The position numbers and the translations under genes were made by a program. The notes beneath the pieces are model-generated. The model worked only from the letters and a program-made list of their open reading frames with translations, was not told the origin of the DNA and made no database searches. From the NCBI GenBank assembly GCA_016183175.1, contig JACPFC010000088.1:1-35748 (forward strand): DNA of 35,748 nucleotides. The letters are read 5' to 3'. This DNA comes from Deltaproteobacteria bacterium. GTDB taxonomy: Bacteria > UBA10199 > SBBF01. This document shows positions 13,106 through 14,847 of the stretch, in pieces (position 1 is the stretch's first letter; each line of letters starts with the position of its first letter).

Positions 13106-14176
13106 ATGTCGTTACCGTTTGATGCTGAAATCATTTGGCGGAATAAGGGTATCTCTCCCTCCGAGGCTCTGGCAATCCTTCAATGCACCGAAGAAGAGTA
13201 TTTCTCCGGCGTAATGCCGGCGGCCAAGGCGCTTCGCGAAAGGGCCTTCGGGAACAAAATCAGCTTTTGTTCCATCACCAACGCCAAAAGCGGCGCCTGT
13301 GTGGAGGACTGCAAATTCTGCGCGCAGTCGAATTTTTACAAGGGAACCCAGGCTCCGGTTTACGGCCTCAAGTCGGCCGATCAGATTGTCGCGGATGCAA
13401 AAGCGGCCGATGCCTTTGGGGCCACCGAGTTTTCCATTGTCACCAGCGGCCGGGGAATGACCAAAAAGCGTGAGCTCGACACGCTGGTTTCCGCCCTCAA
13501 ACGGATTCACGACGAAACCGACCTCGAATCATGCGCCTCGCTGGGGCTCATGAGTCATGATGATCTAAAGCGCCTCCGCGAGGCCGGAATGATCAACTAC
13601 CATCACAATATCGAAACCGCCCGCTCGTATTTTCCCAACATTGTCACCACCCACACCTTCGACGAAGAGGTGGAAAGCCTCAAAAACGCCAAAAAGCTCG
13701 GTTTTCAAATTTGTTGCGGCGGTATTTTGGGGATGGGGGAATCCTTGGAACAGAGGGTTGAATTTGCCTTTGACTTAAAGGAGATCGACCCCGACTCCAT
13801 TCCGGTGAATTTCTTAAATCCCCGCCCGGGAACGCCTCTGGCCGACCTGAACGATCTGACACCGCTCGACTGCTTGAAGCTGATATCGATGATCCGCCTC
13901 GTTTTGCCGCGCAAAGAACTTTTTGTCTGCGGCGGCCGCGAGGTGAATATGAAAGACCGGCAGGACAAAATGTTTGACGCAGGGGCCTCGGGCACGATGC
14001 TCGGCAACTATTTAACCACCCCCGGGCGCGCCGCTGATGAGGATCTCCAGATGATCCGTTCGCTGGGGCTGGAAACGGTCACTCCACACCGGAGGGCGAT
14101 GGAAAGCGACATTGGGCACTGCGGAGAGGGGGGGATTCGAACCCCCGGTAGGGCTTTTGGCCCTACAACGGTTTAG
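13106..14176 (+). CDS. bioB: Biotin synthase BioB (radical SAM)
   Basis: BioB inserts sulfur into dethiobiotin. The radical-SAM cysteines are seen in SGACVEDCKFCAQS (CxxxCxxC), with family motifs TSGRG, NIETARSYFP, CCGGILGMGES, NFLNPRPGTPL and FVCGGREVN. The length (356 aa) is normal, but the last residues (CGEGGIRTPGRAFGPTTV) are antisense of the tRNA-Ser(GCU) gene. The stop TAG at 14174-14176 lies in the anticodon region, so the two genes overlap by about 55 bases. No other bio gene is adjacent. The start ATG 13106 follows the sequence AAGGCTCTCCCATC. Confidence 0.95.
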   Translation: MSLPFDAEIIWRNKGISPSEALAILQCTEEEYFSGVMPAAKALRERAFGNKISFCSITNAKSGACVEDCKFCAQSNFYKGTQAPVYGLKSADQIVADAKAADAFGATEFSIVTSGRGMTKKRELDTLVSALKRIHDETDLESCASLGLMSHDDLKRLREAGMINYHHNIETARSYFPNIVTTHTFDEEVESLKNAKKLGFQICCGGILGMGESLEQRVEFAFDLKEIDPDSIPVNFLNPRPGTPLADLNDLTPLDCLKLISMIRLVLPRKELFVCGGREVNMKDRQDKMFDAGASGTMLGNYLTTPGRAADEDLQMIRSLGLETVTPHRRAMESDIGHCGEGGIRTPGRAFGPTTV

Positions 14177-14211
14177 CAAACCGCCGCCTTCAGCCACTCG
14201 GCCACCTCTCC
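14122..14211 (-). tRNA. tRNA-Ser (anticodon GCU)
   Basis: A class II tRNA of 90 nt with a 7-bp acceptor stem GGAGAGG/CCTCTCC, discriminator G, a long variable arm and T-loop GTTCGAATC. The anticodon loop TTGCTAA gives GCU. CCA is not encoded. It overlaps the 3' end of bioB on the opposite strand. Confidence 0.95.
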
Positions 14212-14270
14212 CCCGCCAAACAACACGGCGGGTCCCCCTCACCAAATTGACTATCCTTTGTTTGGCGGGG
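14211..14270. repeat. 13-bp inverted repeat starting at the tRNA-Ser(GCU) 5' end
   Basis: CCCCGCCAAACAA (14211-14223) has an exact reverse complement at 14258-14270, with a 34-base loop. The first arm begins at the first base of the tRNA. More GCCCGCC/GGCGGGC arms follow at 14275, 14293, 14303, 14319, 14674 and 14694. Confidence 0.7.
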
Positions 14271-14332
14271 GAGAGCCCGCCACTAAAACTTTGGCGGGCA
14301 CGGCCCGCCTCGTTTTTTGGCGGGCTCCTATT

Positions 14333-14575
14333 CTATTTTGTCATGCAAATTCTCAAAGTAACTCGCCCTTTCCCCGTCTTGAAATATCGCTCCCTTTTCT
14401 CTGCTTGTCCCCTATTGTAGAAAGATTCTGAATAAACAAGCTCAAAAGGACGACGATGTTTAGTTGAACTCACTTTCCCAGCGTTATGTTCTTTAATACG
14501 TCGTTCCAAATCAGCAGTTGTCCCGACATAATGCTTCAAATCGTTGACACTTTTCAAGACATAAACAAAATACAT
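14333..14575 (-). CDS. Small GIY-YIG nuclease-domain protein (UvrC/YhbQ-like)
   Basis: An 80-residue protein made of one GIY-YIG endonuclease module. MYFVYVLKS matches the GIY-like strand and HYVGTTADLERRIKEHNAGKVSSTK the YIG-type strand with its conserved Arg. RPFELVYSESFYNRGQAEKRERYFK carries the conserved Glu region. Stand-alone proteins of this kind are DNA-structure-specific nucleases or of unknown role. The start is at 14575, where the domain begins; the frame continues upstream without family similarity. The gene lies between two divergent tRNA-Ser genes and is bracketed by GCCCGCC/GGCGGGC repeats. Confidence 0.85.
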   Translation of the reverse strand: MYFVYVLKSVNDLKHYVGTTADLERRIKEHNAGKVSSTKHRRPFELVYSESFYNRGQAEKRERYFKTGKGRVTLRICMTK

Positions 14576-14702
14576 ACATGACTGGCTGTTTTTGCCAGAA
14601 AAAAACCGATAGTTCAAGGAACAATTGCCGTTTGATTTTCCCAGAAAAATTACGCACAATACCCCGTCGCATTGCCCGCCCCACTAATGCGTTGGCGGGC
14701 TT

Positions 14703-14762
14703 CCCCCAACACCACGAGTGCTTTGAGGGATGGGGGACCCAACAACGCAGTAGTGTTGGGGG
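14703..14762. repeat. 10-bp inverted repeat ending at the tRNA-Ser(UGA) 5' end
   Basis: CCCCCAACAC (14703-14712) pairs with GTGTTGGGGG (14753-14762). The second arm includes the first two bases of the tRNA. This mirrors the arrangement at the tRNA-Ser(GCU) gene. Confidence 0.65.
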
Positions 14763-14847
14763 AAGGGTGGCCGAGCGGTTGAAGGCACCGGTCTTGAAAA
14801 CCGGCAGGCCCGAAAGGGTCTCGTGAGTTCGAATCTCACCCCTTCCG
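14761..14847 (+). tRNA. tRNA-Ser (anticodon UGA)
   Basis: A class II tRNA of 87 nt: acceptor GGAAGGG/CCCTTCC, discriminator G, D-arm GGCCGAGCGG, variable arm with a GAAA loop, and T-loop GTTCGAATC. The anticodon loop CTTGAAA gives UGA. It is divergent from tRNA-Ser(GCU) about 550 bases away. CCA is not encoded. Confidence 0.95.

What the first reader, a model, noticed from the sequence alone, without database searches (positions are those of the whole stretch)
14122..14847. Two divergent tRNA-Ser genes bracket a GIY-YIG gene, with inverted repeats at both 5' ends
A 13-bp inverted repeat begins at the first base of tRNA-Ser(GCU) and a 10-bp one ends at the second base of tRNA-Ser(UGA). Several GCCCGCC/GGCGGGC arms surround the nuclease gene in between. 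A small nuclease beside tRNAs with symmetric palindromes suggests a mobile or self-maintaining island.
Basis: partly seen in the sequence, partly recalled or inferred. Interest (0 to 1): 0.55.

Follow-up and report, generated by a model that had tools for sequence, protein, structure and literature searches.

The report
Tiny nuclease element invading tRNA neighbourhoods
A very small DNA-cutting enzyme gene, wrapped in hairpin-forming repeats, has inserted itself right beside a tRNA gene, and many of its relatives in other bacteria sit beside or inside genes for tRNA and other structured RNAs, which points to a poorly known kind of mobile DNA.

Summary
Two divergent tRNA-Ser genes bracket an 80-residue GIY-YIG gene; the inverted repeats at their 5' ends are longer than reported (18 bp perfect; 16 bp with one mismatch) and run 5-6 nt into the tRNAs. 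Only these 2 of 40 tRNAs in the genome have one. A relative of the same family (G002) has the same pair 155 nt apart, without nuclease, GCCCGCC palindromes or Ser(GCU)-side repeat, but with the Ser(UGA)-side hairpin. So 361-383 nt (hairpin, palindromes, nuclease) landed against Ser(GCU), and a 36-nt palindrome landed nearby; the UGA hairpin is older. The nuclease belongs to a subfamily distinct from UPF0213. A tRNA lies within 300 nt in 25 of 80 named loci and 12 of 17 relatives' loci, the nearest always on the gene's strand, against 0 of 18 UPF0213 controls; six more of the 80 lie in or near rRNA, RNase P RNA or tmRNA genes. Partial tRNA copies with hairpins often flank these genes, though nuclease-free genomes have some too. 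The window's palindrome core also sits inside RNase P RNA genes. Best reading: a palindrome-based mobile element aimed at structured-RNA genes, probably driven by this nuclease; the driving step is inferred.

The parts
14121..14211 (-). tRNA-Ser(GCU), 5' end at 14211; the insertion abuts its first base
   Evidence: junction seen against G002
14761..14848 (+). tRNA-Ser(UGA), divergent partner
14333..14575 (-). GIY-YIG nuclease ORF, 80 aa
   Evidence: Pfam PF01541; ORF read; AlphaFold model pLDDT 96.2, closest solved folds UPF0213 and Slx1
14206..14223 (.). tRNA-proximal arm of the 18-bp inverted repeat, running 6 nt into tRNA-Ser(GCU)
   Evidence: RNA fold z -5.7
14258..14275 (.). distal arm of the 18-bp inverted repeat
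14700..14715 (.). distal arm of the 16-bp inverted repeat at tRNA-Ser(UGA); homologous hairpin present in G002
14750..14765 (.). tRNA-proximal arm, running 5 nt into tRNA-Ser(UGA)
14230..14238 (-). GGGGGACCC motif in the loop of the Ser(GCU) leader hairpin
14732..14740 (+). GGGGGACCC motif in the loop of the Ser(UGA) leader hairpin
14275..14299 (.). REP-like palindrome GCCCGCCACTAAAACTTTGGCGGGC
   Evidence: its core pattern is exact at 13 sites in 46 class genomes
14303..14325 (.). REP-like palindrome GCCCGCCTCGTTTTTTGGCGGGC
14674..14700 (.). REP-like palindrome on the other side of the gene; lies, but for its last base, in a 36-nt stretch (14664-14699) that G002 lacks
14212..14594 (.). main insertion relative to G002 (361-383 nt; the right edge lies somewhere in 14572-14594), in the place of at most 25 nt in G002
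   Evidence: edge placed by eye because the automatic alignment misplaced the G002 tRNA end

Best explanation
The stretch between the two tRNA-Ser genes holds an inserted mini-element: REP-like palindromes plus one gene, a bare 80-residue GIY-YIG catalytic domain, placed flush against the first base of tRNA-Ser(GCU) in an older divergent tRNA-Ser pair. It is one case of a widespread class in which such nucleases, and small palindromes that go with them, lodge beside or inside structured-RNA genes (tRNA, RNase P RNA, rRNA, tmRNA), often with a complete tRNA next to a partial copy that carries hairpins. Most likely mechanism: the nuclease, whose fold is nearest to UPF0213 and to the branched-DNA nuclease Slx1, cuts hairpin or cruciform structures that palindromes and tRNA genes form in DNA; repair of the break copies the palindromes and the nuclease gene into the new site; copies that keep an intact RNA gene survive. 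Shown: presence and absence at this site, the association, the strand agreement, the partial tRNA copies, and palindromes inside RNase P RNA genes. Inferred: that this nuclease moves the palindromes, that it recognises structure, and the repair step.
For: Occupied and empty site in the same family. tRNA within 300 nt: 25 of 80 named loci and 12 of 17 loci of the relatives search, nearest tRNA on the gene's strand in 37 of 37, against 0 of 18 UPF0213 controls. Six more of the 80 in or near other RNA genes: inside 16S (L088) and 23S (L087, L128), overlapping or near RNase P RNA (L089, L079), near tmRNA (L155). A partial copy of the same tRNA lies upstream of the gene in 16 of 24 5'-type loci, beyond 50 shuffles each; 13 of the 16 start at tRNA base 1. 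Sister nucleases sit at different tRNAs (Asp/Arg, SH-aLRT 98; Tyr/Ser, 93); 26 changes of amino-acid identity among 37 rows with 17 identities. The closest homolog (G014, 62% identity) is followed by the palindrome core twice. Of 13 exact core sites in 46 genomes: 3 at nuclease genes, 4 in 5' flanks of tRNAs, 3 inside RNase P RNA by Rfam, 1 in an RNase P fragment by eye, 2 elsewhere. Fold match to UPF0213 and Slx1.
Against: In the window no partial tRNA-Ser copy is seen upstream of the gene (score 18, best shuffle 18), and the closest homolog L006 has no tRNA in the 2 kb held (its contig ends about 300 nt after the gene). The Ser(UGA)-side hairpin predates the insertion. In the tree 53 of 96 family rows have no RNA neighbour by these tests, among them a group of 28 rows with none. 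The control regions also held partial tRNA copies: beyond the 3' end of the tRNA in 8 of 22 5'-type loci (5 of the 8 reach the tRNA's 3' end), and upstream of the tRNA in 5 of 13 3'-type loci; only 3 of 13 3'-type loci have a copy beyond the gene. By the same shuffle test the two genomes without a family nuclease are not clearly poorer in upstream copies: 4 of 40 tRNAs in G004 and 6 of 38 in G001 against 7 of 40 in G000; with scores of 25 or more it is 2, 1 and 6. Most palindromes of G000 (14 of 17) are not at this gene, so something else could move them. There are no cleavage data.
Confidence: 0.55

Rival explanations
1. A sequence-specific free-standing homing endonuclease: it cuts the nuclease-free tRNA gene at a fixed site and spreads by ordinary gene conversion; the palindromes are unrelated hitch-hikers.
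For: GIY-YIG domain with weak matches, below the curated cut-off for NCBIfam, to homing-endonuclease profiles; occupied and empty alleles; partial tRNA copies as expected if the tRNA is restored on insertion; phage SegB as a GIY-YIG precedent (PMC13096335, search listing and start of abstract only).
Against: The protein is only the catalytic domain (80 aa), with no extra DNA-binding region in the model. Insertion points differ between loci: where the copy starts at base 1 it ends anywhere from base 11 to base 71. The palindrome core recurs exactly at RNA genes without a nuclease beside it.
Confidence: 0.25
2. The nuclease is a passenger: flanks of structured-RNA genes are permissive landing zones, and the palindromes are moved by another, unseen enzyme such as a REP-type transposase.
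For: The same tRNA-Ser gap holds a different gene pair in G005. Five tRNAs of this genome carry a base 1-19 copy plus a palindrome without a nuclease. 14 of 17 palindromes of this genome are not at this gene. Nuclease-free genomes also have tRNA copies.
Against: Strand agreement in 37 of 37 loci and no tRNA near 18 of 18 controls; inverted repeats around family genes in 24 of 79 loci beyond 20 shuffles against 3 of 18 control rows (17 genes, one counted twice), with one motif pair shared by 10 of 80 loci. I did not search these genomes for a REP-type transposase.
Confidence: 0.2
3. The hairpins are host regulation: leader structures of tRNA-Ser that control transcription or processing, unrelated to mobility.
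For: The Ser(UGA) hairpin is kept in G002; both leaders share GGGGGACCC and have a stem matched to their own tRNA; strong folds.
Against: Only 2 of 40 tRNAs have it. The predicted precursor of Ser(GCU) breaks its acceptor stem to form the hairpin while that of Ser(UGA) keeps the acceptor stem. The Ser(GCU) hairpin lies in the insertion.
Confidence: 0.15

Closest known systems
UPF0213 / YhbQ-type GIY-YIG proteins
   Same: Same fold, best structural hit 1zg2
   Different: Separate branch in the tree (SH-aLRT 95); none of 18 sampled UPF0213-like genes has a tRNA within 300 nt
Free-standing phage homing endonucleases of the Seg group (SegB)
   Same: GIY-YIG homing nuclease; PMC13096335 (listing and start of abstract) concerns SegB and a tRNA; that segB lies in a tRNA cluster is recalled
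   Different: Here chromosomal, catalytic domain only, with palindromes; only 7 phage records show a match, all at 45.5% identity or less
GIY-YIG-encoding insertion sequences in rRNA genes of CPR bacteria (PMC11270868, passages read)
   Same: GIY-YIG proteins inside 16S and 23S genes, not in introns; L087, L088 and L128 here look like such cases
   Different: The word tRNA does not occur in that main text, and it holds that GIY-YIG there lies outside spread by homing
Rickettsia palindromic elements (PMC2229807, passages read)
   Same: Palindromes inside RNase P RNA and tmRNA genes
   Different: Not compared by sequence here; no nuclease is named in the passages read; here the core is tied to a GIY-YIG gene
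REP elements with RAYT transposase (recalled)
   Same: Gene flanked by palindromes that also occur alone
   Different: GIY-YIG nuclease instead of a Y1 transposase; no paper in the library holds both 'GIY-YIG' and 'repetitive extragenic palindromic'
Integrative genomic islands in tRNA genes (PMC9897764, passages read)
   Same: Partial tRNA copy beside a complete one
   Different: Element of a few hundred bases with no room for an integrase; copies upstream of family genes are mostly 5' parts, several with hairpins

Membership tests
Free-standing homing endonuclease | Nuclease domain of a homing-endonuclease superfamily | tested here: met
   PF01541 E about 1e-16
Free-standing homing endonuclease | Occupied and empty alleles of the same site in relatives | tested here: met
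   window against G002
Free-standing homing endonuclease | Cuts the empty allele at its insertion site | not testable with these tools
   needs biochemistry
UPF0213 | Falls with UPF0213-like sequences in a tree | tested here: not met
   11 canonical rows stand against 96 family rows, SH-aLRT 95; only 87 columns, short search, no bootstrap
REP/RAYT system | Palindromes flanking the gene and dispersed in the genome | tested here: met
   3 palindromes here, 17 sites in the genome
REP/RAYT system | Gene encodes a Y1 (HUH) transposase | tested here: not met
   the gene between the palindromes is GIY-YIG
Group I intron | Intron RNA structure around the gene | tested here: not met
   at gathering scores Rfam finds only the two tRNAs in the window
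Integrase-type genomic island in a tRNA gene | Encodes an integrase; 3' tRNA end duplicated | tested here: not met
   549 nt between the tRNAs with ORFs of at most 147 aa overlapping it; only the GIY-YIG ORF of the gap was put to Pfam; no tRNA copy found upstream of the gene

The most novel reading that the evidence does not exclude
A previously unrecognised class of minimal mobile elements: a lone, structure-recognising GIY-YIG catalytic domain that spreads itself and short palindromes into genes for structured RNAs (tRNA, RNase P RNA, rRNA, tmRNA) across many bacterial phyla, and that escapes harm by leaving a complete RNA gene next to a hairpin-loaded copy.
Probability: 0.4. Interest if true: 0.85.

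Novelty: new variant of a known kind. Interest (0 to 1): 0.62.

Why it matters
It would link three loose ends: the many orphan GIY-YIG genes of uncultured bacteria, the non-intron GIY-YIG insertions in their rRNA genes, and palindromes found inside RNase P RNA and near tRNAs. It offers a testable driver for palindromic repeats that is not a transposase, and a way for DNA to invade essential RNA genes without killing the host. It would also explain some partial tRNA genes that annotation may count as real.

Tried and rejected
Group I intron: rejected, no intron model hit in the window. Genome-wide enrichment of GGGGGACCC: rejected, 30 sites against 31 control matches; only the sites next to tRNAs stand out, 4 of 30 within 100 nt 5' of a tRNA on the same strand. 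A nuclease-linked D-loop element across the class (TAGCTNAGNNGGGGGGWCCC): exact matches only in G000 (4) and G002 (1) of 46 genomes, the other 9 rows having 2 mismatches, at control level; so it looks like a family-level element. Partial tRNA copies as a mark unique to nuclease loci: rejected. Flanking inverted repeats in the 17 loci of the relatives search: 6 of 17 beyond 20 shuffles against 3 of 18 control rows, weak. The palindrome core with one mismatch allowed: above its control only in G000 (5 against 2), G014 (5 against 1) and G032 (8 against 1), elsewhere about control level. Phage origin: only 7 weak records. The lists returned by the 10 literature searches showed no paper whose title or abstract start describes GIY-YIG genes beside bacterial tRNA genes with palindromes; the lists are capped, and preprints and most subscription papers are not in the library, so this is not proof of absence.

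Rfam was run on 56 of these 80; the other 24 all have a tRNA by ARAGORN, 23 of them within 300 nt and one (L130) at 339 nt. The 17 loci (15 from the class, two of these from the window's own genome, and 2 from outside it) and the 18 controls were chosen by me from the hits by likeness to one or the other subfamily. In one search one control gene was counted twice (L029 and L063) and one family locus and one control fell out for short flanks. For the nuclease-free genomes I took 40 of 45 tRNAs of G004 and 38 of 39 of G001. L138 was left out of the tree as a fragment, and 11 of the 18 controls went in. Shuffle tests were single runs of 20 or 50 shuffles, and borderline loci changed.

Full report
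What is there. tRNA-Ser(GCU) (14121-14211, -) and tRNA-Ser(UGA) (14761-14848, +) point away from each other. Between them, on the - strand, is an 80-codon ORF with a GIY-YIG domain. Each tRNA 5' end is the end of an inverted repeat: 18 bp perfect for GCU, 16 bp with one mismatch for UGA, and both run into the tRNA by 5-6 nt. The two loops are 34 nt long and share GGGGGACCC, although the stems differ and match their own tRNA. Among 40 tRNAs of the genome only these two have such a repeat; shuffled leaders gave 2 of 800. Three GCCCGCC palindromes surround the gene.

Empty site. Divergent tRNA-Ser(GCU)/tRNA-Ser(UGA) neighbours also occur in G002 (same family, other genus; 155 nt between), G004 (367 nt) and G005 (761 nt, holding a VapBC-like pair); in G006 the two genes face the ends of two contigs and may be neighbours. 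In G001, G003 and G007 they lie on different contigs with no sign of being neighbours: in G001 the 5' side of Ser(GCU) is inside a 41-kb contig ('VapBC-like' is my reading of the translated ORFs, not a family search). So the pair is older than the nuclease in this order, though not kept everywhere. Compared with G002 the window has (1) 361-383 extra nt flush against base 1 of Ser(GCU), holding the GCU-side hairpin, two palindromes and the nuclease, in the place of at most 25 nt, and (2) 36 extra nt with the third palindrome (edges partly by eye). The UGA-side hairpin is shared with G002, so it did not come with the nuclease. Loss in G002 instead of gain here is possible but less simple, since G004 and G005 also lack the nuclease in this gap.

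The nuclease family. AlphaFold gives a confident model (pLDDT 96.2) nearest to UPF0213 (1zg2, E 1.7e-4) and Slx1, then to the catalytic domain of I-TevI. It is only the catalytic domain. In a tree the family (96 rows) stands apart from 11 canonical UPF0213-like rows (SH-aLRT 95; 87 columns, so inner order is weak). Of the best 80 of 493 hits in GTDB genomes, 52 have titles naming groups that I recall as Patescibacteria; the others include Margulisbacteria, Omnitrophica, Elusimicrobia, Bacteroidetes and Verrucomicrobia or are unnamed.

Association with RNA genes. In 25 of 80 named loci and 12 of 17 loci of the relatives search a tRNA lies within 300 nt (within 100 nt: 21 and 10); in all 37 the nearest tRNA is on the same strand as the nuclease; in 18 UPF0213-like controls there is none. 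Seventeen amino-acid identities occur among these 37. Of the other named loci, three genes lie inside rRNA genes (L087, L088, L128), one overlaps the start of an RNase P RNA gene (L089), one follows an RNase P RNA gene by 262 nt (L079) and one precedes a tmRNA gene by about 140 nt (L155). Sister nucleases at different tRNAs suggest movement between sites.

Partial tRNA copies with hairpins. When the gene lies 5' of a tRNA, the sequence upstream of the gene often repeats part of that tRNA: 16 of 24 loci beyond 50 shuffles; in 13 of the 16 the copy begins at tRNA base 1, and the 15 nt before it agree in 2 to 11 positions, 40% on average. In several cases hairpins sit in a loop of the copy, for example in the T-loop between TTCG and CGAA in L106, L015 and L099 (by eye). 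When the gene lies 3' of a tRNA, a part is repeated beyond the gene in 3 of 13 (L118, L123, L151). Against a simple story, the control regions were positive too: 8 of 22 beyond the 3' end of the tRNA, 5 of these reaching the tRNA's 3' end, and 5 of 13 upstream of the tRNA in 3'-type loci. In G000 five tRNAs without a nuclease have a copy of bases 1-19 followed by a roughly 45-nt palindrome that begins GGGG(A/T)CCC; one more case is at tRNA-Thr in G002. With neighbouring tRNAs masked, upstream copies beyond the shuffles number 7 of 40 in G000, 4 of 40 in G004 and 6 of 38 in G001, the last two having no family nuclease; with scores of 25 or more the numbers are 6, 2 and 1. The window locus itself has no tRNA-Ser copy upstream of the gene.

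Palindromes. The core SCCACTAAWRCTTTGGS occurs exactly 13 times in 46 class genomes: G014 has 5, G000 3, G032 3, G039 1, G002 1. Their places: the window; twice just after the closest nuclease homolog (L006); three tandem units 5' of tRNA-Ser(CGA) in G014; 5' of the tRNA-Gly copy in G000; inside RNase P RNA genes of G039, G032 and G002 by Rfam; in a contig-end RNase P fragment of G000 (by eye, not over the Rfam threshold); and two places in G032 without an RNA gene in the stretch taken. The tandem units are not independent, so by place it is about 8 of 10. Of the 24 further sites with one mismatch I took two more in G032; both have a tRNA within 70 nt. Another palindrome of the window's general form (G000 C51) also lies inside an RNase P RNA match.

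Mechanism. Shown: insertion here, association, strand agreement, complete tRNA genes next to partial copies, and the palindrome in RNase P RNA. Inferred: that a bare Slx1-like catalytic domain recognises hairpin or cruciform DNA rather than a long sequence, that palindromes and tRNA genes supply such structures, and that break repair copies the element. The mirrored tRNA bases in both leader stems suit hairpin-primed copying but could also reflect selection on the RNA; the predicted precursors disagree (GCU breaks its acceptor stem, UGA keeps it).

Comparison with what is known. The rRNA cases agree with the GIY-YIG insertions reported for CPR bacteria (PMC11270868, passages), where tRNA is not mentioned. 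Rickettsia palindromic elements occur in RNase P RNA and tmRNA (PMC2229807, passages). SegB is a phage precedent (listing only). The lists of the ten searches showed no description of this combination. I rate it a new variant of known kinds (homing nuclease, REP-like palindrome) with a fair chance of being a class of its own.

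Noticed in passing
L253 (G005:C29:4800-6100), ORFs 460-678 and 656-1039: The same tRNA-Ser gap holds a VapB/VapC-like pair (named from the translation, not searched), so this gap has taken up different genes.
   Followed up: partly
L035, L036, L039, L042, L044, L048, L049 (G000): A dispersed repeat of roughly 100 nt (GCGCGGGGTTTG, a GCCCGCC palindrome, then about GAAATCCATGACGCGAGTAGC and GGGCCGAAAGGGCCCC) is seen at 7 places among the 12 loci printed; nature unknown.
   Followed up: no
L038 1-1772, L041 1-1668 (G000 contigs C51, C57): The RNase P RNA gene of this genome appears split over two contig ends and carries GCCCGCC palindromes (for L038; L041 by eye).
   Followed up: partly
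L001 (G000:C32), gene 1459-1722 on -: The second family nuclease of the genome lies between inverted ACCCTGTGAGATA / TATCTCACAGGGT (by eye; the automatic test did not flag it) and next to an ORF that looks like the four-helix-bundle protein of 23S intervening sequences (recalled, not searched).
   Followed up: no
L078, L080, L081, L082, L083, L086, L088, L089, L090, L094: One lineage of the family has conserved terminal inverted repeats ACCCCCACACC / GGTGTGGGGGT (up to 2 mismatches each) close around the single gene, like a roughly 300-nt insertion sequence.
   Followed up: partly
G000 C2:9004, C38:11766, C16:4184: Three tRNA genes share a GC-rich leader ending CCCCCGATATAAT or CCCCCGATATCAT.
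   Followed up: no
L362 (G014:C36:69700-70600): Three tandem 143-nt units, each with the palindrome, stand directly 5' of tRNA-Ser(CGA).
   Followed up: partly
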